From: Cellulosilyticum lentocellum DSM 5427
GTDB taxonomy: Bacteria > Bacillota > Clostridia > Lachnospirales > Cellulosilyticaceae
Assembly (NCBI RefSeq): GCF_000178835.2
Contig: NC_015275.1
Coordinates: forward strand, 3,811,001 to 3,875,000
Reading direction: 5' to 3'
DNA: 64,000 bases
A model generated the notes under the pieces. The model made no database searches and was not told the DNA's origin. It worked only from the letters and a program-made list of their open reading frames with translations. A program made the translations under genes and the position numbers. Shown here one piece after another: positions 1 through 57,558 of the stretch. Each line of letters starts with the position of its first letter. Within the stretch, counting starts at the first letter, position 1.

Positions 1-615
1 AACGCCACCTTCTATAGATGTTTTTCCCTTTAAATCACCCTGTATTTTTACATCCCCGACACCCATTTTTGTATCTGTCTCTTGGCTTACAAGGTTATTA
101 ATAACGACTTCTCCTACTCCCCCTTTAAGCTCAAACGCATCTGTTACCACATTATCAATATGTGCTTCTCCAATACCCATCTCAATATCCATATGCTCTA
201 ATGACTTGCCTTCAGGTATATATAAAGTCATCTTTCCTATTTTAGTATTAAATCCAAATAAAGAAGGATGTTTGGCACTTTGCTTTATGACTAATTCATC
301 CTTTTTGACTTCATAGGAGAATACACCTGCTTTAGCATACGTAGCCTCTAGCTGGTAAGTATCACCTGTTTTAATTTCTAAGTCCATTGTATCTATATTT
401 AAAGTAAGCTTATCAAAGTTCTCTAGCTTTTCAGTAATCGTATTAAACTCCTCGCTATCGTAGTCCCTACTTACATAGGTTACGCCATTTACACCAATCT
501 TTACATTATTCCAGGTAACAGAGGTATCAGCACCTGCTACATATGCCCCAAAACATAAAACGCCGCCACTAATAATCAGTCCTATAGCTAAACCTAGTAC
601 ACTTCTTCCTCTCAT
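1..615 (-). CDS. DUF4097-type putative adhesin/envelope protein, C-terminus cut by window edge
   Basis: The minus frame is open from an ATG at 615 to the window edge, so only the N-terminal ~205 residues are visible. An AAGGAGGT ribosome binding site lies just upstream (621-630). The product starts with a short basic stretch and a hydrophobic signal/anchor segment (about residues 5-28). After it comes a repetitive beta-strand pattern with recurring G-x-G-[ED] turns (MGIGEAHI, GGVGEVVI, MGVGDVKI), typical of the DUF4097 right-handed beta-helix family. DUF4097 proteins are commonly paired with DUF1700 (HAAS) and PadR genes, as here, and are thought to act at the cell envelope. The exact function is not known. 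It follows the DUF1700 gene with a few bases between and is surely in its operon. Confidence 0.8.
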   Translation of the reverse strand, partial: MRGRSVLGLAIGLIISGGVLCFGAYVAGADTSVTWNNVKIGVNGVTYVSRDYDSEEFNTITEKLENFDKLTLNIDTMDLEIKTGDTYQLEATYAKAGVFSYEVKKDELVIKQSAKHPSLFGFNTKIGKMTLYIPEGKSLEHMDIEMGIGEAHIDNVVTDAFELKGGVGEVVINNLVSQETDTKMGVGDVKIQGDLKGKTSIEGGV

Positions 616-620
616 TTGAC

Positions 621-1334
621 TTACCTCCTTCCATAACTTCTATTTGTAATCAAATCTTTTATACTTCCTAAGAGGAAGACATTCACGAATTTATTAGCAT
701 ACTTTGTAACAAGCCCCATAATTAGAGCAAAGCCAAATATCGCAAGTGCTATACCTATTACGAATAAACCTGTCATAAACTGCCCACCTAAAGTGGCTGC
801 TCCTGCCATTAAACAAACCACTCCAGCTACCGAAAGCACAAAACTCACTATTCCCAAAGCAAAGATAGTCACTTCTATGCCTATTAATACCCCTATTGCC
901 CCAAATAACAAAGGAACAATGACTGGGATGGCAATAACAAGGAGTATAATAACCAACGGAGATGATCCTAGTGATTTAAAGCTGCTCCTGCTTTCTTTAT
1001 TTTCTTGTAGCTTAATATCATCTAAATTAATTGATCCTGCACTACTAGTGAAATCATTATTAGTTTGATATCCCTTATTACTAAAATCATAACTATTTTC
1101 AGGTTCCTTAGCCGTAAACTCATTACCATTTTCAGTCTCCCTATTATGAAAGTCCTCCATAATCTGCTTAGCAATTGCCCTAGGGTCACCTAACTCCTCA
1201 AGCACTCTTTCTTCATTTTCAGCTCCAGCTTCTTCAAAGTATTCCTCATAATACTCTAATGCCGCCTCAGCTTCTTGGTAAGGTAATTTGACAATCCCCG
1301 CTCGCAATTCTTTCATAAAATCTGTTCTATTCAT
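621..1334 (-). CDS. DUF1700/HAAS-domain membrane protein
   Basis: The start is taken at the ATG at 1334 (MNRTDFMKEL), preceded by GAGGGGGT; an upstream in-frame codon at 1352 has no site of its own. Residues 1-60 form the alpha-helical HAAS/DUF1700 domain: the pattern F-x-x-x-L-x-x-x-L, then EEYFEEAG, then ELGDPRAIAKQI is characteristic. A low-complexity linker follows, then three to four hydrophobic segments in the second half. HAAS proteins are usually controlled by a neighbouring PadR-type repressor and are found with DUF4097 partners, exactly the three genes here. The ATG overlaps the end of padR (ATGAATAG), so the two are probably translationally coupled. Biochemical role unknown. Confidence 0.85.
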   Translation of the reverse strand: MNRTDFMKELRAGIVKLPYQEAEAALEYYEEYFEEAGAENEERVLEELGDPRAIAKQIMEDFHNRETENGNEFTAKEPENSYDFSNKGYQTNNDFTSSAGSINLDDIKLQENKESRSSFKSLGSSPLVIILLVIAIPVIVPLLFGAIGVLIGIEVTIFALGIVSFVLSVAGVVCLMAGAATLGGQFMTGLFVIGIALAIFGFALIMGLVTKYANKFVNVFLLGSIKDLITNRSYGRR

Positions 1335-1647
1335 TCCTTGATACCCCCTCAAGTACTAAATCTATTTTTTCCTTAAACCCAGTCCATTCTACCTTATAGG
1401 TTTGTAGCTTTTCCTTTCCTTCTTCTGTAATCCCGTAATATCTTCTATTTCTCCCCTGAAAAGCTTCATCGTAAGTATTTAAAAGGCCATCCTTTTGTAA
1501 TCTTCTAAGAACAGGATACAACGTAGATTCTGAAACCTCCATTAACTCTTTTGCTTCCTGTGTTAAACGATAGCCATAGACATCTTCTTTTTCTATAATT
1601 GCTAAAATACATGCTTCTAATAAATTTCCACCTAATTGCAATGCCAT
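1327..1647 (-). CDS. PadR family transcriptional regulator
   Basis: The start is placed at the ATG at 1647 (MALQLGGNLL) because AAGGAGGGGT lies immediately upstream. The open frame extends 30 codons further, but that stretch runs across the promoter and is unlikely to be translated. The ~106-residue product is a winged-helix protein: LEACILAIIEKEDVYGYRLTQ, then SESTLYPVLRRLQKDGLL, then the wing GRNRRYYGITEEGKEKL, which is the PadR signature. It is the short PadR-s2 form with a brief C-terminal helix for dimerisation. PadR proteins repress their own operon and release DNA on ligand or stress signals. It is the first gene of the padR-DUF1700-DUF4097 operon. Confidence 0.92.
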   Translation of the reverse strand: MALQLGGNLLEACILAIIEKEDVYGYRLTQEAKELMEVSESTLYPVLRRLQKDGLLNTYDEAFQGRNRRYYGITEEGKEKLQTYKVEWTGFKEKIDLVLEGVSRNE

Positions 1648-1670
1648 CTTACCCCTCCTTGCTCTCCTAG

Positions 1671-1683
1671 GCATACTGTATGC
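1671..1683. promoter_or_regulatory. Perfect 13-base palindrome, candidate PadR operator
   Basis: GCATACTGTATGC is a perfect palindrome just downstream of the promoter and about 24 bases before the padR start codon. PadR proteins bind dyad sites in their own promoter region, so autoregulation is a fair inference. A binding test is needed to prove it. Confidence 0.4.
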
Positions 1684-1709
1684 TACATGAGTATTGTGTT
1701 GATATCTAT

Positions 1710-1737
1710 AGTATACGCAATATAATATACATTTCAA
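1710..1737 (-). promoter_or_regulatory. Probable sigma-A promoter of the padR operon
   Basis: On the minus strand TTGAAA (1732-1737) is followed after 16 bases by TATACT (1710-1715). Transcription would start near 1703, leaving a ~55 base leader to padR. It overlaps nothing else. Confidence 0.5.
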
Positions 1738-1807
1738 CGTAATATTATGATTTTTAATTATATTCTAATCTTCTAATCTTTTTTTCATAAAAGCAAGGGC
1801 CGAGTCC

Positions 1808-2010
1808 GCTATGTAGTCCAGCTAGGTGTCTTACTTTCAGCTGCTGTCTCACATCGTCAAGAGGCTCTCAACTCATACTACTTATGAACGACCAAAAACT
1901 CGCATTCGCTCAAACAATTGGTCTAAGAACCATAAGTAGCATTTCGTTAAGAGCCTCTAGACTCCGCTCCAAGGCATCTTCCAGCAAGCCACCTAGCTTC
2001 CCTACATAGC
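1808..2010. repeat. Long nested inverted-repeat (hairpin) element, ~200 bases
   Basis: This non-coding stretch is clearly richer in GC than the AT-rich flanks and folds end to end. Paired arms seen directly: 1808-1816 with 2002-2010 (9 bp), 1820-1828 with 1990-1998 (9 bp), 1842-1846 with 1982-1986, 1861-1868 with 1950-1957 (8 bp), 1878-1886 with 1931-1939 (9 bp) and 1890-1895 with 1918-1923 (6 bp). There is no convincing open frame. It could be a palindromic repeat spread through the genome (MITE/REP-like) or a structured RNA. The overall shape resembles a long irregular hairpin, but I see no sequence match to a named RNA family. Confidence 0.6.
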
Positions 2011-2100
2011 TACTGCTGGGCAAGAAAAAACTAGTGGACAAATTTACACCTTGTTACGTTGAAATATAATCACTTATTTTATTATTCTCTCTGAGTAAGA

Positions 2101-2291
2101 TTAAGTATGACTTATTCTTAACTCCTTTACTTCATCAATAGGCAAACCTATTTTAGCTGCAATAGTTGCATCATCTAATACATCTAATAGCGCTTTAGCA
2201 AGCTCCAATTCTCGTACTCTATTAGATTTTGTATAGCTAGAAGTAGTTTATAAAAGTCCTCTCCTAAGATTTTATTCTCTTCAAATAGCAT
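2101..2291 (-). pseudogene. Frameshifted C-terminal remnant of an Rpn/PD-(D/E)XK nuclease-family protein
   Basis: Directly downstream of the helicase gene two short minus frames together look like the tail of a longer protein. The first begins MLFEENKILGEDF at 2291 and ends about 35 codons later. The second carries LELAKALLDVLDDATIAAKIGL and P-IDEVKELR, ending at 2101. The ending pattern (helical lead, then an A-x-K-x-G-L-x-x-[ED]-E-[VI] helix pair) is what Rpn-family recombination-promoting nucleases and related transposase-like proteins show at their C-terminus. There is no start region, no nuclease motif and a frame change, so this is a fossil. Family assignment is by motif resemblance only. 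Confidence 0.5.
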
Positions 2292-2298
2292 GTCTGCT

Positions 2299-4236
2299 TT
2301 ATATATGGTAATTTTCTACACCTTCTGCTATTAAACCTATTGTTTTCATTTCTCCATACTGTACTTTATTAATTTGCATTCTTTCCTTTAAGTACTTACC
2401 TAATTCAATATCTTCACAGAAAACATAACATCCCTTTTGCCCTCGCGTCATCAACGTACGATACGTATTCCTAATAATTTTGTCAGCTAATGCCAATGCC
2501 TCATTTTCTCTTTTTTTACACTTGCCTAGTAGTCCATTAAGAGATTTATCTGTCTTAGCTCTCTTCGTATAGTCTGTTATTACTTTACCATCTCTATAAA
2601 TCATGTCCATTCCAATAATAACACCTACATAGTCAAACTCTAATCCTTGACAAGTATGAATACACCCTACTTCCTGTACAGATTCTTCATCTATAGCCCA
2701 TGTATTAGTATTTCCAAGATTCCAGCTCATGGAAAAATCATAATCCGGTAAATTAATATCATGTACATTTGTATTTTCTTTGCCTGCTTTAATCCATTCC
2801 CAACAATATCCAGCAACCATTCTTGCTTTATTATTTATGCTATTTTTTTCATAAATAATCTGCTTTAGTTCATTAGGATTATCTAGTACTTCAAATAAAT
2901 AGTCATGCTCAAATCCTATATCATTCGCTGTTTCTCTTATTCCCAAAACATCATCTATCCATGCTAAATATCCATCTGAGCCATTGCACCTAAACTGAGA
3001 ATCTAAACCCACCTTAATTACCTGTGCCCCTTGTTTCTTTGCAAAACTTTCAATCTCTTCAATACTTCCTACATCACTTGCTGTAACACGTTGGCATTCA
3101 TCTATAAAAAATATAGCACATTTTGCTGCATGGATGATTTCCTTGGTTTGATTTTCTCCTATGTTCTTAAACATCCCCGATTTTTCATTTAAACGATGAG
3201 CTTCATCAACTATCAGCACATCCAACTCATTTTTATTACTATCTACATAACTTCCCGAGCCTTTAAAAAGGTTATCAATATAACTCTTTTTATAGTTACT
3301 TTGAAGCCTTCGCTTATAGACTTCCCTGGGTGCGCTATTTTTTGAAATATATTGACATACCATGCTTTCATTTGTTAGCTGTACTAAAAGATTAATCGCT
3401 AAAACTGATTTCCCTGTACCTGGTCCACCCTCTACTATAATAACTTGCTTTTTACCGGTATCAAACGCAAATCTTGCTTGATTTAAGGCTGTTTCATATA
3501 CTACCTTCTGAGAGTCTATCATAACAAACTCCTGATTACCCTGTAACATTTTTAATAATGCATCCTGCAAAGATTTTGAAGGTCTAATTTTTCCATGCTC
3601 TATTTTATATAAAGTTTTATTTTGGTCGGGTTTCTGGACATATCTTTCTATAAATTCCCTTAACTTTTTCACATCTCCATTTTTAAAGAGTGGCGCTTTT
3701 TTAAGGCAACCATAGATTTCTTCATCTAAAATAGGGTCACCGTCTTGCGTAATATAATTATGCAAATAAGAACAAGGATGTAATTCTATATCTTGATTTT
3801 GAACTGTTTCATTATAATCTCTAATTATAGCCGCATATGACCAAGCTTGATATGAAGGATGAGCAACCTCTCTTTCTTTATGACCAACAAAAGTACGTAC
3901 AACATCCTCTTTATTTACTCGCTCTGCCTTTTGCCACTGTTTTAATTCGATTATAATGACAGTCTCTTTACCAAACTCATTTTCACCTGTTATTATAAAG
4001 TCTACTCTTTTAGAAGTAGTAGGCAATCGATATTCTATAGCAATACCAGCTTTCCTAGGAACAGCATTAGTGTTTAAAACCTTATACATGTACTGCATTG
4101 AATGATTCCATGAAGCAATTTCACTTTGGCTTGTCCTACCTATCTTGGTAGAATACTGCTCATATATTTTTTGCTCAATTAGATCTTCTTCTACATGTTC
4201 TAGAAACTCCTCTTTTGTAGCTTGATAAATAATCAT
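2299..4236 (-). CDS. Nuclease-like/DUF2075-type DNA/RNA helicase domain protein
   Basis: 645 residues. The N-terminal ~200 residues hold a PD-(D/E)XK-like arrangement: E69, D79 (KRVDFIIT) and E97-L-K99 (IIIELKQ). Residues ~235-645 form a superfamily-1-like ATPase: Walker A GGPGTGKS at 270-277, DEAH box LIVDEAHRL near 341-349, a QFRCNGSDGYLAWID segment, then CQGLEFDYVGVIIG, and a C-terminal LMTRGQKGCYVF that matches helicase motif VI. This is the layout of DUF2075 (Schlafen group 3-like) helicases. It starts at an ATG with AAGGAAG upstream and follows the MazG-like gene by 14 bases, so they form an operon. Related helicase-nuclease fusions occur in phage defence loci. That role here is inference, and the substrate is unknown. 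Confidence 0.8.
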   Translation of the reverse strand: MIIYQATKEEFLEHVEEDLIEQKIYEQYSTKIGRTSQSEIASWNHSMQYMYKVLNTNAVPRKAGIAIEYRLPTTSKRVDFIITGENEFGKETVIIIELKQWQKAERVNKEDVVRTFVGHKEREVAHPSYQAWSYAAIIRDYNETVQNQDIELHPCSYLHNYITQDGDPILDEEIYGCLKKAPLFKNGDVKKLREFIERYVQKPDQNKTLYKIEHGKIRPSKSLQDALLKMLQGNQEFVMIDSQKVVYETALNQARFAFDTGKKQVIIVEGGPGTGKSVLAINLLVQLTNESMVCQYISKNSAPREVYKRRLQSNYKKSYIDNLFKGSGSYVDSNKNELDVLIVDEAHRLNEKSGMFKNIGENQTKEIIHAAKCAIFFIDECQRVTASDVGSIEEIESFAKKQGAQVIKVGLDSQFRCNGSDGYLAWIDDVLGIRETANDIGFEHDYLFEVLDNPNELKQIIYEKNSINNKARMVAGYCWEWIKAGKENTNVHDINLPDYDFSMSWNLGNTNTWAIDEESVQEVGCIHTCQGLEFDYVGVIIGMDMIYRDGKVITDYTKRAKTDKSLNGLLGKCKKRENEALALADKIIRNTYRTLMTRGQKGCYVFCEDIELGKYLKERMQINKVQYGEMKTIGLIAEGVENYHI

Positions 4237-4250
4237 TTATCTACCCTTCC

Positions 4251-4565
4251 TTATAGCTCAGTATATTTTTTACTTGTTCCTCTTGCTTTTTCTACGGGAT
4301 ATTTGTTTTCATTCTTACTCATTTTATTCATAATTATTTCTTTATAATCTACACCTAATGCATCTGCCATAAATAAGCAATATACTATTACATCTGCTAA
4401 TTCTTCTCCAACCATTTCCTTGTTAAATTCATTTCCCCATTGAAAATGTTCCAATAGTTCTCCTGCCTCGATATTAATGGACTTTGCTAGATTTTCAGGA
4501 GAATGAAATTGCTTAAAATCTCTATCATCTCTAAACTTTCGTATACGTTCTAATATCTCTTCCAC
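4251..4565 (-). CDS. MazG-like nucleotide pyrophosphohydrolase
   Basis: 104 residues, GTG start with AAAGGGG upstream. It is the small all-alpha NTP pyrophosphohydrolase fold of the MazG/RS21-C6 (dCTPase-like) group. The metal-binding ExxE...ExxD signature is complete: E33-x-x-E36 in IEAGELLEHFQWG and E55-x-x-D58 in EELADVIVY. Such enzymes hydrolyse (d)NTPs to monophosphate and pyrophosphate for nucleotide-pool cleaning. Some act in defence by depleting nucleotides. It lies 14 bases upstream of the helicase gene on the same strand and is its only clear operon partner. Substrate (dCTP, modified dNTP or other) cannot be read from the sequence. Confidence 0.88.
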   Translation of the reverse strand: MEEILERIRKFRDDRDFKQFHSPENLAKSINIEAGELLEHFQWGNEFNKEMVGEELADVIVYCLFMADALGVDYKEIIMNKMSKNENKYPVEKARGTSKKYTEL

Positions 4566-4654
4566 GTTAAAGCCCCTTTCTCTTTATTCTTATTAATATT
4601 AGTATATTAATTTTAAACAACTTTTTCAAATTTTATTAGGGACTTATCATTCTC

Positions 4655-5050
4655 GCGGCATATATATAAATGTAAAAGTAAATCAAGTAACTTCCTCGGC
4701 ATAATTACCACAGCTTCAATCTGAGGAACTGACCGGGTCAGCCAAGTCTCAATCTATTGTTATAGGTACCTCTGGACTTAAGGAAAATGTTCACTGATGC
4801 GCTGCAAGGAAGGCGCCATATATAAGTTGCAAAAAAGCTTTTACACTGTTTTACAAATAAAGTTTTAAACCAGAGTCTTAAAGCCTTAGCTTCCTCATCA
4901 TAAGGGTGCACCGGCTAAGACTTTTAAGAGCTCCTCACTCTTCGTTTAAACTTTCATAGCTTATACCTGTGGCCTCTTTAAGTGCAAAGCGTACTGAGGA
5001 GCTACCCTTATGCCCTGTTTCAGCTATTGGTATAGGTTATATAAGTGAAT
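4655..5050. other. ~400-base gene-free structured region upstream of the mazG-like gene
   Basis: No supportable ORF. The best structure is in 4899-5012: CATAAGGGT at 4899-4907 pairs perfectly with 5004-5012, and AGCTCCTCA at 4929-4937 pairs perfectly with 4995-5003, enclosing a ~57-base head. The left half (4655-4830) has a small hairpin CTGAC-CGG-GTCAG near 4728-4740, a possible TTCCTC/GAGGAA pairing (4692-4697 with 4723-4728) and imperfect direct repeats near 4655-4669 and 4813-4825. GC content is visibly above that of its surroundings. Together with 1808-2010 it brackets the helicase/MazG operon. Confidence 0.45.
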
Positions 5051-5066
5051 AACGAGAGTCTGGCAC

Positions 5067-5116
5067 ATAGCAAAAGCCACCCCTTTAGATTTTTCTAAAG
5101 GGGTGGCCTTTGCTAT
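5067..5116. terminator. Long perfect stem-loop, terminator-like
   Basis: A 23-base arm at 5067-5089 pairs with 5094-5116 around a 4-base loop, with only slight imperfection. It lies 48 bases past the stop of the PurK-like gene (minus strand). Neither side has a classical U-run, so it may be a weak terminator, an RNA-stabilising hairpin or a repeat. Confidence 0.5.
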
Positions 5117-5163
5117 ATGATAAATATCTATAGAAACTTCAAATTCAACTCTTTTATTTCTTA

Positions 5164-6192
5164 TTAAGCCTTAGGCTCTTCTTTATCTCTTTTAATATAT
5201 AATTGATTTTGTCCTAATTGATAAAAATGATAAATACCTTTTTCCTCTTTTTGCTCCTTAACAGGTTTAATAGTTCCCTGTACATAAGCTTCTAATTCTG
5301 GTTTATTAATAGACATGCCCACTAATAAATGTAGATACTGCTCATAAATAGAAAGTTCATATGCTTCTAAGGTGAGAAGTCCTGCCATAGAGAGCTCTGG
5401 TGTAATCTCAATAAGTTCCACACTTTTGTTTGCTTTAATACCATATTTGATTGTAAAAGCGCCAATACCATTTATTTCTTTAAGCAGCTTTTTATTATAA
5501 CGATTAAGACGTGTTAACATAGTCTTAGATAAGCTGTCAGAAATCTTTAGATGACAAGTTTTATCTTCATCATTTAATTCTTCTACTGGGTCGTATATAT
5601 ATGCTTTTTCATCTTCATCGACAATACAAAGAAAAGTTATGATGCGGCTATACTTAGTAATAGGTTGCAGAATAAAGCTATCTGCTCCTTCATCTACTTC
5701 TAAGATAAAGTCTGCCAAATCTTCTTTATTATAAACAGCCATCTGCTCAGTTCGGTCTGTATATTGCTTAATAAACCTAAATGGCATTTCTAAATTCTCC
5801 ATTTGAGAAAAAGCTTGCTGCTTATTATCTTGATAATAAACCTTAGGCACTGGAATATCTAGAAATTCTAAAATATCCTGTACATTTTTAAAATGGCAAA
5901 GGTCTTTCATTGTTTCCTTATTTGGATAAGTTTTTGCATGGAGTTTAACATTTAACTCGAAATCCAATTTCGTATTAAAAATAAGAACATCACATCTTAA
6001 ACTTAGCTTTTGAATACTTTCATTGGTAATAGCTGATATAATGTGTTCATTTGCCAATTGGGAGCCTATACATCCCACTTTAGGATCTAACAGACTTGTT
6101 CTTATACCCACCTTAGCAGCTTCAATACAAAGCATTAAAGCTGAAGTTCCTCCTCCAACTATACCTATTTGCTTAATACCATTAAAGTTCAT
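5164..6192 (-). CDS. Divergent PurK-like ATP-grasp protein of unknown function
   Basis: 342 residues with GAGGAG 8 bases before the ATG. The N-terminus (IGIVGGGTSALMLCIEAAKVG) is the Rossmann-like pre-ATP-grasp domain seen in PurK/PurT, followed by a central ATP-grasp region (residues ~100-280). The expected C-terminal metal/ATP segment of PurK, E-x-x-P-R-x-H-N-S-G-H, is reduced to EITPELSMAGLLT, so the arginine/histidine part is gone. True PurK sits with pur genes, while this gene sits alone between an unknown membrane protein and structured DNA. It is best described as an orphan, probably repurposed ATP-grasp paralogue. An N5-CAIR synthase call would be unsafe. Confidence 0.65.
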   Translation of the reverse strand: MNFNGIKQIGIVGGGTSALMLCIEAAKVGIRTSLLDPKVGCIGSQLANEHIISAITNESIQKLSLRCDVLIFNTKLDFELNVKLHAKTYPNKETMKDLCHFKNVQDILEFLDIPVPKVYYQDNKQQAFSQMENLEMPFRFIKQYTDRTEQMAVYNKEDLADFILEVDEGADSFILQPITKYSRIITFLCIVDEDEKAYIYDPVEELNDEDKTCHLKISDSLSKTMLTRLNRYNKKLLKEINGIGAFTIKYGIKANKSVELIEITPELSMAGLLTLEAYELSIYEQYLHLLVGMSINKPELEAYVQGTIKPVKEQKEEKGIYHFYQLGQNQLYIKRDKEEPKA

Positions 6193-50539: not shown

Positions 50540-50769
50540 TCCTTTTCGTACTTTTTTGAACCTAGTACGACTAGTGGTGACTGTACACTCTGCTGGTGTT
50601 AATAAGCGCAAACTTATATCAAGCATTTCCATATAACTATGGACACGCCTAACACCTATTCAATATAGTACAGTGACCTGCCGCCTGGTTTCTTGAACCT
50701 GACATTCGCTCCCCAGAAATCCATCTTGCGATGCGTAACCTCCTGGATCATAGTTCTCAATGTCACAAC
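50540..50769 (-). promoter_or_regulatory. Structured leader of the S10 operon (candidate L4-responsive r-leader)
   Basis: About 230 bases between promoter and rpsJ with clear pairings: 50576-50586 with 50668-50678 (10 of 11), 50595-50601 with 50650-50656 (7 of 7), 50606-50608 with 50646-50648, and a hairpin 50628-50633 with 50638-50643. A smaller hairpin is at 50687-50699. The nested stems are preserved as one large folded domain just upstream of rpsJ. L4 feedback on S10 leaders is known in other bacteria; for this leader it is inference. Confidence 0.6.
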
Positions 50770-57395: not shown

Positions 57396-57558
57396 CGTCC
57401 ACATTTCTTCCGCTAGGAAACCCTAGGTTCCCTGCGGCGCTGACAAAAAACATGTCAGCTGAGCACCCTCCTGAATACGGCAGGAAATACTTTCCCTGCA
57501 CCCCTTATAGTCTAGGAAAATTCTATTTTTATACAAAAGTAGAACTTTCCTAGACTAT
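57387..57558 (+). other. Array of tandem hairpins downstream of the ydcF-like gene
   Basis: Five consecutive stem-loops read directly: 57387-57392/57397-57402 (spans the stop codon), 57410-57413/57434-57437 with inner pairing, 57439-57444/57454-57459, 57480-57499 (GCAGGAAATACTTTCCCTGC), and 57507-57519/57546-57558 (13 bp). It is GC-richer than its flanks and has no ORF. Possibly a structured RNA, an mRNA 3' stabiliser or a repeat cluster. Confidence 0.5.

What the first reader, a model, noticed from the sequence alone, without database searches (positions are those of the whole stretch)
2299..4565. MazG-like hydrolase + DUF2075-type nuclease-helicase operon: candidate anti-phage module
A two-gene operon (14-base gap) pairs a small NTP pyrophosphohydrolase (ExxE...ExxD intact) with a protein that joins a PD-(D/E)XK-like N-terminus to a DEAH superfamily-1 ATPase. 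Nucleotide hydrolases and helicase-nucleases are both used in known defence systems. The genes sit among structured DNA and next to a nuclease-family fossil, as accessory genes often do. Function is inference.
Basis: partly seen in the sequence, partly recalled or inferred. Interest (0 to 1): 0.65.

Follow-up and report, generated by a model that had tools for sequence, protein, structure and literature searches.

The report
MazG–nuclease-helicase pair, probable defence module
A small enzyme that breaks down DNA building blocks sits next to a DNA-cutting motor protein, and because the same two genes travel together through very different microbes, often beside anti-virus genes, they are probably an undescribed bacterial defence unit, although nobody has yet shown that it stops a virus.

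Summary
Both genes are real and intact. Gene 1 (window 4565-4251, minus) is a DCTPP1-like MazG pyrophosphohydrolase. Gene 2 (4236-2299, minus) joins a PD-(D/E)XK nuclease to a Schlafen-group-3 helicase (PF09848, formerly DUF2075). Key catalytic residues are invariant in 65 and 56 aligned sequences.

The pairing is strong. Of 79 homologous loci, 65 carry the MazG: 50 directly upstream (24 overlapping), 9 directly downstream, 2 on the opposite strand, 4 separated. It persists when the nuclease domain is replaced by GIY-YIG. It is not obligatory: seven of 40 genomes searched lack such a MazG.

In 30 of 79 loci the pair has a PLD-DUF3427 type IV restriction helicase, C5-methylase, HNH, NUDIX or HIT gene nearby; matched control regions do not share these. 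In the window the pair lies in a segment of about 5.4 kb absent from 9 of 11 relatives' loci.

I judge it an accessory defence module of a known kind (helicase-nuclease) in an apparently undescribed combination. Likeliest mechanism: the motor-nuclease cuts invading DNA while MazG removes dCTP or 5-modified dCTP. Anti-phage activity, substrate and complex formation are untested. Eight full-text searches on the pair found no description.

The parts
4251..4565 (-). Gene 1: MazG-like (DCTPP1/RS21-C6-type all-alpha) NTP pyrophosphohydrolase, 104 aa, GTG start
   Evidence: PF12643 E=3.4e-24; solved relatives 4qgp E=6.5e-21 and DCTPP1/RS21-C6 E=2.5e-16
2299..4236 (-). Gene 2: PD-(D/E)XK nuclease fused to Schlafen-group-3 (PF09848/DUF2075) SF1 helicase, 645 aa, ATG start
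   Evidence: PF09848 E=4.8e-102, residues 263-609; AlphaFold pLDDT 85.1
3628..4236 (-). PD-(D/E)XK domain, about residues 1-203; D79 (codon 4002-4000), E97 (3948-3946), K99 (3942-3940)
   Evidence: D79, E97, K99 and E68 invariant in 65 rows; domain model pLDDT 87.7; VIA-align top rows Can2/Cdn1 Z 8.0-8.7 over 132-154 residues, then lower Z for EndoMS, McrBC, NucC, Cap4 and type II enzymes; Foldseek alone nothing at E<=0.001
2410..3450 (-). SF1 helicase domain, residues 263-609; Walker A 3429-3406, DEAH 3207-3196
   Evidence: Foldseek best match human SLFN11 7zel E=1.8e-10, then RecBCD chain D and RecD2
4458..4469 (-). MazG metal-binding motif E33xxE36
   Evidence: invariant in 56 rows
4392..4403 (-). 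MazG metal-binding motif E55xxD58
   Evidence: invariant in 56 rows
4237..4250 (-). 14-base intergenic gap with Shine-Dalgarno GGAAGGG (4250-4244)
   Evidence: read
4573..4579 (-). Shine-Dalgarno AAAGGGG of the MazG gene
   Evidence: read
4601..4629 (-). promoter-like site TTGAAA-17-TATACT just upstream of the MazG gene
   Evidence: 10 of 12 consensus positions; 25 such sites found in the region against 16.8 expected, so weak evidence

Best explanation
An accessory, horizontally spread two-gene defence module against invading DNA. The Schlafen-group-3 motor travels on DNA and its PD-(D/E)XK domain (GIY-YIG in sister versions) cuts it. The co-transcribed MazG enzyme hydrolyses a dNTP, most likely dCTP or 5-modified dCTP. 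That either keeps modified cytosine out of host DNA, so that modification-directed cutters spare the host, or starves and cleans the precursor pool of the invader. Shown here: gene pairing, intact catalytic motifs, both folds (MazG by sequence), the accessory segment, the recurrent neighbours and the nuclease swap. Inferred: co-transcription (from spacing), anti-phage function, DNA rather than RNA as target, the dCTP substrate, and any physical contact between the proteins. I give about 0.6 for 'defence module' and about 0.3 for the dCTP-pool mechanism.
For: Pair in 65 of 79 loci, among them Bacillota, Bacteroidota, Mycoplasmatota, Patescibacteria-type groups and Pseudomonadota, with several arrangements, and on a haloarchaeal plasmid. 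Gene order needs 3 changes on the tree. Distances of the two proteins correlate, r=0.75 over 48 pairs, permutation maximum 0.19. MazG stays when the nuclease becomes GIY-YIG: Pfam hit in L110 and L130, by eye in L107, L129 and L131. Recurrent neighbours in the 79 loci: PLD-ResIII-DUF3427 type IV enzyme 11, NUDIX 11, HNH 10, HIT 9, C5-methylase 9; 30 of 79 have at least one (one NUDIX tested matches PADLOC candidate PDC-S07, E=6.2e-47). In 27 loci against 27 control regions, families in at least 4 regions: 6 against 1 (an ABC ATPase). Segment of about 5.4 kb absent from 9 of 11 relatives' loci. dCTP lead: nearest characterised MazG relative is DCTPP1, described in the abstract of PMC7162842 as having high affinity for dCTP and modified dCTP derivatives (abstract opening in search listing); the best solved relative of two NUDIX neighbours is a putative CTP pyrophosphohydrolase.
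Against: No phage assay exists. Of 40 genomes searched (of 79 loci), 7 have no such MazG (L006, L010, L018, L021, L025, L030, L081), so the helicase can do without it. Of 17 Bacillota MazG loci from genomes without the strong helicase, 15 have no such helicase in the stretch fetched, so MazG of this family also works alone. 49 of 79 loci have none of the five recurrent families in the fetched flanks. Families shared by at least 2 regions are fewer near the pair than in controls, 9 against 19. PADLOC: 220 distinct families from 107 neighbours against 70 from 108 controls, but the best single family is matched by 4 proteins in each set (methylases here; mad3 in controls), many models are redundant methylases, and only 25 families were shown. 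The inserted segment in the window holds no recognised defence gene besides the pair. MazG scores nothing in PADLOC. One NUDIX of four (L089) passes the MutT cut-off, which favours purine sanitation. Few phage matches: 4 of 50,697 records, one of them close, and none in IMG/VR by strict peptide patterns.
Confidence: 0.5

Rival explanations
1. A DNA-damage or genome-maintenance module: the helicase-nuclease processes damaged DNA and MazG (with MutT- and HIT-like neighbours) cleans damaged dNTPs; induction follows DNA damage.
For: NUDIX, HIT and MazG hydrolases recur together. Four NUDIX neighbours scanned match MutT models about as well as the pyrimidine diphosphatase model, and one (L089) passes a MutT cut-off. 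A C-terminal S24 (LexA-type) peptidase is fused to the helicase in L042 (Pfam E=4.8e-19) and by eye in L046. RadC and RmuC genes were seen as neighbours in L055 and L037.
Against: Sporadic presence (12 of 398 Bacillota genomes), a segment absent from relatives' loci, restriction enzymes and methylases as neighbours. House-keeping repair genes are rarely so patchy (general knowledge).
Confidence: 0.2
2. A nucleotide-gated switch: MazG is not an effector but sets or senses the dNTP level that holds the nuclease off, so that phage-driven changes of the pool release cutting (Gabija-like logic, recalled).
For: MazG and helicase are tightly coupled (24 of 50 upstream pairs overlap), the MazG metal ligands are invariant, and MazG stays while the nuclease fold changes, as expected of a regulator of the motor.
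Against: Seven of 40 genomes keep the helicase without any such MazG. No further nucleotide-binding domain was listed for the helicase beyond its own P-loop matches (25 of 33 rows shown).
Confidence: 0.15
3. Selfish or plasmid/phage-maintenance genes rather than host defence, carried as cargo of mobile elements.
For: Homologues on plasmids (18 records at E<=1e-40) and in a Microcystis phage record with MazG and a TPR gene; transposase or integrase genes near three plasmid copies.
Against: At least 20 of the 79 loci lie on contigs over 200 kb, several of them multi-megabase (counted by eye); no match in IMG/VR by peptide pattern; cargo on mobile elements is common for defence genes too.
Confidence: 0.1
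4. Chance neighbours with unrelated roles.
For: MazG is missing in 14 of 79 loci (at least three of them cut by contig ends).
Against: Fisher p=2.4e-6, several gene orders kept together, correlated distances.
Confidence: 0.02

Closest known systems
PF09848 / DUF2075 Schlafen group 3 helicase family (human SLFN11 as solved relative)
   Same: whole helicase domain (E=4.8e-102); SLFN11 is the best Foldseek match
   Different: N-terminus is PD-(D/E)XK or GIY-YIG; no Schlafen-core RNase domain among the Pfam rows shown; a MazG partner gene
DCTPP1 / RS21-C6 (MazG-like dCTP pyrophosphatase)
   Same: sequence family and metal site; residues 4-104 align
   Different: bacterial, encoded with a nuclease-helicase; the Trp47 equivalent is Phe17 in the window copy (Trp in at least 90% of aligned rows); substrate untested
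Nhi and AbiO (phage-defence proteins in PADLOC)
   Same: helicase part matches (Nhi E=6.3e-15, AbiO E=2.7e-16); nuclease-helicase logic of Nhi recalled
   Different: best stretches cover only part of the protein; no MazG partner in those systems as I recall them
PDC-S41 (PADLOC phage-defence candidate)
   Same: two stretches match, the better one residues 3-316 (E=1.5e-15)
   Different: weak score (54.6 bits); candidate only, mechanism unknown
Type IV PLD-ResIII-DUF3427 restriction enzymes (SauUSI-like, name recalled)
   Same: frequent neighbour (11 of 79 loci; mREase_IV E=4.8e-197 for the one scanned); also a motor fused to a nuclease
   Different: ResIII-type motor and PLD nuclease, another protein; absent from the window segment

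Membership tests
PF09848 SLFN-g3 helicase (DUF2075) | full-length match above the curated cut-off | tested here: met
   342.3 bits against 24, profile 1-354 of 354
PF09848 SLFN-g3 helicase (DUF2075) | Walker A, DEAH and later SF1 motifs conserved | tested here: met
   G270-K276, D344/E345/H347, Q382, Q530/G531, R598 invariant in 65 rows
PD-(D/E)XK nuclease superfamily | D-(x)n-ExK catalytic residues on the core strands | tested here: met
   D79, E97, K99 invariant, on strands 77-85 and 91-99 of the model
PD-(D/E)XK nuclease superfamily | fold | tested here: met
   Can2/Cdn1 Z 8.0-8.7, several restriction enzymes, NucC, McrBC, Cap4 at lower Z; the tool warns that best Z of 7-8 is usual even without a clear match, and Foldseek alone gave nothing at E<=0.001, so this rests on the motif as well
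Schlafen (vertebrate group III) | N-terminal Schlafen-core RNase domain | tested here: not met
   no Schlafen-core domain among the 25 of 33 Pfam rows shown; N-terminus is PD-(D/E)XK
MazG-like (PF12643) / DCTPP1 type | profile match and ExxE / ExxD metal site | tested here: met
   85.3 bits against 27; E33, E36, E55, D58 invariant
MazG-like (PF12643) / DCTPP1 type | hydrolysis of dCTP or 5-modified dCTP | not testable with these tools
   needs purified enzyme
Nhi / AbiO defence proteins | match over the whole protein, nuclease part included | tested here: inconclusive
   three stretches each; best 234-418 (Nhi) and 182-418 (AbiO)
Gabija | TOPRIM nuclease gene next to a UvrD helicase gene (recalled) | tested here: not met
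   no Gabija model among the six PADLOC matches up to E=10; nuclease is PD-(D/E)XK in the same chain
Anti-phage defence system (general) | accessory, defence-island context | tested here: met
   restriction, methylase, HNH, NUDIX or HIT families in 30 of 79 loci and not recurrent in controls; segment absent from 9 of 11 relatives' loci. PADLOC family counts alone are weak support
Anti-phage defence system (general) | measured protection | not testable with these tools

The most novel reading that the evidence does not exclude
A two-level defence against invaders that use modified cytosine: the MazG enzyme (with NUDIX and HIT partners in larger versions) strips 5-modified dCTP from the nucleotide pool while a Schlafen-type motor with an exchangeable nuclease (PD-(D/E)XK or GIY-YIG) and a neighbouring type IV enzyme destroy DNA that already carries the modification. 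Precursor sanitation would then be the part that lets a host tolerate modification-directed nucleases.
Probability: 0.17. Interest if true: 0.78.

Novelty: new variant of a known kind. Interest (0 to 1): 0.55.

Why it matters
If the module protects cells, it adds a recurrent MazG plus Schlafen-type nuclease-helicase pair to the known arsenal, links the family of human SLFN11 to prokaryotic defence through its motor, and makes testable why nucleotide pyrophosphohydrolases (MazG, NUDIX, HIT) recur beside modification-dependent restriction enzymes.

Tried and rejected
Chance adjacency: rejected by co-occurrence and by linkage kept through several gene orders. Core housekeeping pair: rejected by patchy presence and the empty site. 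Phage-borne gene: 4 of 50,697 phage records, none in IMG/VR by peptide pattern. Filing under Nhi, AbiO, Gabija or PDC-S41: weak, partial or no matches. A close solved structure of the whole protein by sequence: phmmer gave only RecA chains and spermidine synthases at weak scores. E. coli homologues by DNA with the Halomonas gene: none. Naming the upstream repeat: no Rfam family at gathering, and at E<=1 only a microRNA hit far below its cut-off; none on plasmids. Literature: nine answered full-text searches; eight bear on the pair or its families, one on DCTPP1. I saw listings (30 of 136 papers) and read passages of one paper (PMC12839542); none described the pair. The library lacks most subscription papers and holds no bioRxiv set, so 'undescribed' is limited to that.

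Rows dropped or limited: one search used six peptide patterns and kept the best 80 matches, so its 79 loci are close relatives only, with near-duplicates (for example L037/L039, L027/L068) and two loci of one MAG (L083, L084). L078 (probably a recoded organism, recalled) and its control L162 were dropped. Three distant paralogous rows were dropped. L039 and L045 were left out of A1; L039, L084, L014 and L016 out of A2. One search covered 40 of the 79 loci's genomes. Of 41 Bacillota genomes with the MazG, 8 have the helicase, 17 were examined by region, 16 (mostly weak or partial matches) were not.
Full report
What is there. Two genes on the minus strand, 14 bases apart: a 104-residue MazG-like protein (window 4565-4251) and a 645-residue protein (4236-2299). 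Each has a ribosome site by eye, and a promoter-like site lies just upstream of the first. Pfam gives MazG-like PF12643 at E=3.4e-24 for the first and SLFN-g3_helicase PF09848 (the former DUF2075, recalled) at E=4.8e-102 for the second. The nearest solved relatives of the first are a pyrophosphatase (4qgp) and DCTPP1/RS21-C6.

Catalytic state. In 65 aligned rows of the large protein D79, E97 and K99 of the nuclease, the Walker A lysine K276 and the DEAH residues D344, E345 and H347 are invariant. In 56 rows of the MazG the four metal ligands E33, E36, E55 and D58 are invariant. AlphaFold models have mean pLDDT 85.1 (whole) and 87.7 (residues 1-243). The whole model matches human SLFN11 first by Foldseek, then RecBCD chain D and RecD2; VIA-align puts UvrD and SLFN11 together at Z 19.9-20.8, the SLFN11 rows at rmsd near 18 A. 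The N-terminal model alone gave no Foldseek match at E<=0.001. In the second look Can2 and Cdn1, with the entry 1xmx, lead (Z 8.0-8.7 over 129-154 residues), followed by EndoMS, McrBC, NucC, Cap4 and type II enzymes at lower Z. The tool warns that best Z of 7-8 is usual even without a clear match. Together with the invariant D-ExK on the right strands I take it as a real PD-(D/E)XK domain.

The pair is conserved as a pair. A scan of the species-genome collection with six peptide patterns gave 79 loci (best 80 matches kept) from Bacillota, Bacteroidota, Mycoplasmatota, Pseudomonadota, Patescibacteria-type groups and an archaeon. A MazG homologue lies in 65 of the 79: 50 directly upstream (24 of these overlapping, 21 by exactly 4 bases), 9 directly downstream, 2 on the opposite strand, 4 separated but within the locus; 14 have none. 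On the tree, order needs 3 changes and presence 6, so linkage was kept or rebuilt. Pairwise distances of the two proteins correlate (r=0.75, 48 loci; highest of 2000 permutations 0.19; shared species history is not removed). In a separate draw of 398 Bacillota genomes the helicase occurs in 12 (E<=1e-60) and the MazG in 41 (E<=1e-8); 8 of the 12 have it, within about 1.1 kb as read from the listed positions, against 33 of the other 386 (p=2.4e-6). The four without are G258 (its helicase gene is split), G341, G358 and G391.

Nuclease swap. The helicases of G315 (L110) and G377 (L130) have a Pfam GIY-YIG domain in place of PD-(D/E)XK. The same kind of N-terminus is read by eye in L107, L129 and L131, for which Pfam listed none at E<=0.001. 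All five sit next to the MazG. The partner therefore follows the motor, not the nuclease fold. Two homologues carry a further C-terminal S24 (LexA-type) peptidase: L042 (Pfam) and, by eye, L046, which hints at control by DNA damage in some lineages.

Limits of the pairing. Of 40 host genomes searched whole (of the 79 loci), 33 have a MazG; those of L006, L010, L018, L021, L025, L030 and L081 have none at E<=1e-12, while L026 and L028 have one on another contig (for L028 inferred from position). Conversely, of 17 Bacillota MazG loci from genomes without a strong helicase match, 2 have a GIY-YIG-type helicase adjacent and 15 have none in the fetched stretch; 16 further MazG genomes were not examined. 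Among eight plasmid or phage records read around the helicase (L085-L092), five hold the MazG in the stretch and a sixth has it across the record's origin. Asked the other way, eight plasmid records hold a close MazG: two (Priestia, Marivirga) have the helicase adjacent, four have one about 4-10 kb away (Hymenobacter, Nocardiopsis, two Paenibacillus), and in two (Streptomyces, Caballeronia) none was found in the stretch fetched. In Nocardiopsis the MazG overlaps an HNH gene instead.

Neighbourhood. Clustering of the genes in the loci finds recurrent families besides the pair. In the 79 loci: NUDIX 11, a ~1,040-residue PLD-ResIII-DUF3427 protein 11, an HNH_4 protein 10, HIT hydrolase 9, C5-cytosine methylase 9, a TPR protein 6; 30 of 79 have at least one of the first five, 49 have none in the fetched flanks. 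PADLOC calls the one large protein scanned a type IV methyl-directed restriction enzyme (E=4.8e-197) and the one NUDIX scanned a phage-defence candidate, PDC-S07. As a control I took 28 regions elsewhere on the same contigs and dropped one pair (L078/L162). Families present in at least four of 27 regions: 6 near the pair (methylase, PLD-DUF3427, TPR, HIT, NUDIX and an unknown family confined to four Paenibacillus loci) against 1 (an ABC ATPase) in controls; in at least three, 8 against 3; in at least two, 9 against 19. So near the pair few families recur, but most of them recur across distant hosts and are restriction- or nucleotide-related. Distinct PADLOC families hit at E<=1e-15: 220 from 107 neighbours, 70 from 108 controls; but the best single family is matched by 4 proteins in either set, and the lists are full of redundant methylase models. 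I give this comparison little weight.

Accessory status in this genome. In relatives the ATP-grasp gene that flanks the pair (window 5164-6192) is followed at 23-317 bases by a convergent gene of about 350-410 residues, in 9 of 11 relatives' loci (L188-L196; L186 has another gene, L187 is cut off by its contig end). Here that gene lies at G000 3809656-3810714, so about 5.4 kb separates the two. The extra segment holds an uncharacterised gene with HAAS and PadR genes (a similar set is found elsewhere in three relatives), an inverted-repeat element, the Rpn-like remnant, the pair and one copy of a dispersed repeat. Only 2 of 24 genomes of the family have a match at E<=1e-30, and the other (G017) is the GIY-YIG-like type by eye.

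Mechanism. The helicase-nuclease architecture, patchy spread and company of restriction genes point to defence against foreign DNA. For the MazG, DCTPP1 is described in the abstract of PMC7162842 as having high affinity for dCTP and modified dCTP derivatives (abstract opening seen in the search listing). The company of type IV enzymes, C5-methylases and NUDIX proteins, two of which have a putative CTP pyrophosphohydrolase as best solved relative, makes cytosine-nucleotide sanitation the most economical guess. Against it, NCBIfam scores four NUDIX neighbours about equally near MutT, and one passes the MutT cut-off. The repair rival and the nucleotide-switch rival remain open; the listed experiments separate them.

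Known or new. The parts belong to known families. No description of the pair was found in the eight searches that bear on it (see Tried and rejected); a BREX survey (PMC12839542, passages seen) mentions Schlafen-family RNases, with no occurrence of MazG or DUF2075 in its main text. I call it a new variant of a known kind: a helicase-nuclease defence protein with a frequent but dispensable nucleotide hydrolase partner.

Noticed in passing
window 4630-5070: Copy of a dispersed non-coding repeat of about 440 bp: 38 matches in this genome, itself included, the others at 73-89% identity in both orientations, several partial. A 17-copy alignment folds with 10 pairs changed on both sides. No Rfam family; no match in the six genus relatives searched, short fragments in two other genera (133 and about 45 bases). 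Looks like a structured mobile or RNA element worth its own study.
   Followed up: partly
window 1785-2060: Inverted-repeat element (arms 1808-1844 and 1974-2010) with one diverged relative elsewhere in the genome (73%, G000:C1:404842-405029) and two short matches.
   Followed up: no
window about 2100-2260, minus: C-terminal remnant that translates like an Rpn-family (PD-(D/E)XK) transposase with its frame broken upstream; family name recalled, no profile search run.
   Followed up: partly
window 1-5163: Segment of about 5.4 kb (starting just left of the window) present here and absent from the conserved ATP-grasp neighbourhood in 9 of 11 relatives' loci.
   Followed up: yes
L042:3170-5470 and L046:2460-4868: S24 (LexA-type) peptidase fused to the C-terminus of the nuclease-helicase in two lineages (Pfam for L042, by eye for L046).
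   Followed up: partly
L008, L045, L049, L060, L070, L077, L082: Larger clusters that mix the pair with PLD-DUF3427 restriction helicase, HNH, NUDIX and HIT genes in shuffled order.
   Followed up: partly
L041, L043, L056, L069, L072, L075, L090, L092: A TPR protein of about 650 residues (split in L043 and L092) just upstream of the MazG, also in the Microcystis phage record PP438423.1.
   Followed up: no
L041, L056, L061, L035, L071, L086: Tandem, diverged copies of the helicase side by side.
   Followed up: no
L069, L072, L075: MazG with an extra N-terminal segment of about 95 residues in three Flavobacteriaceae loci.
   Followed up: no
window 50678-50759 and 57427-57513, minus: Rfam S10-Clostridia leader and Clostridiales-2 RNA.
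   Followed up: no
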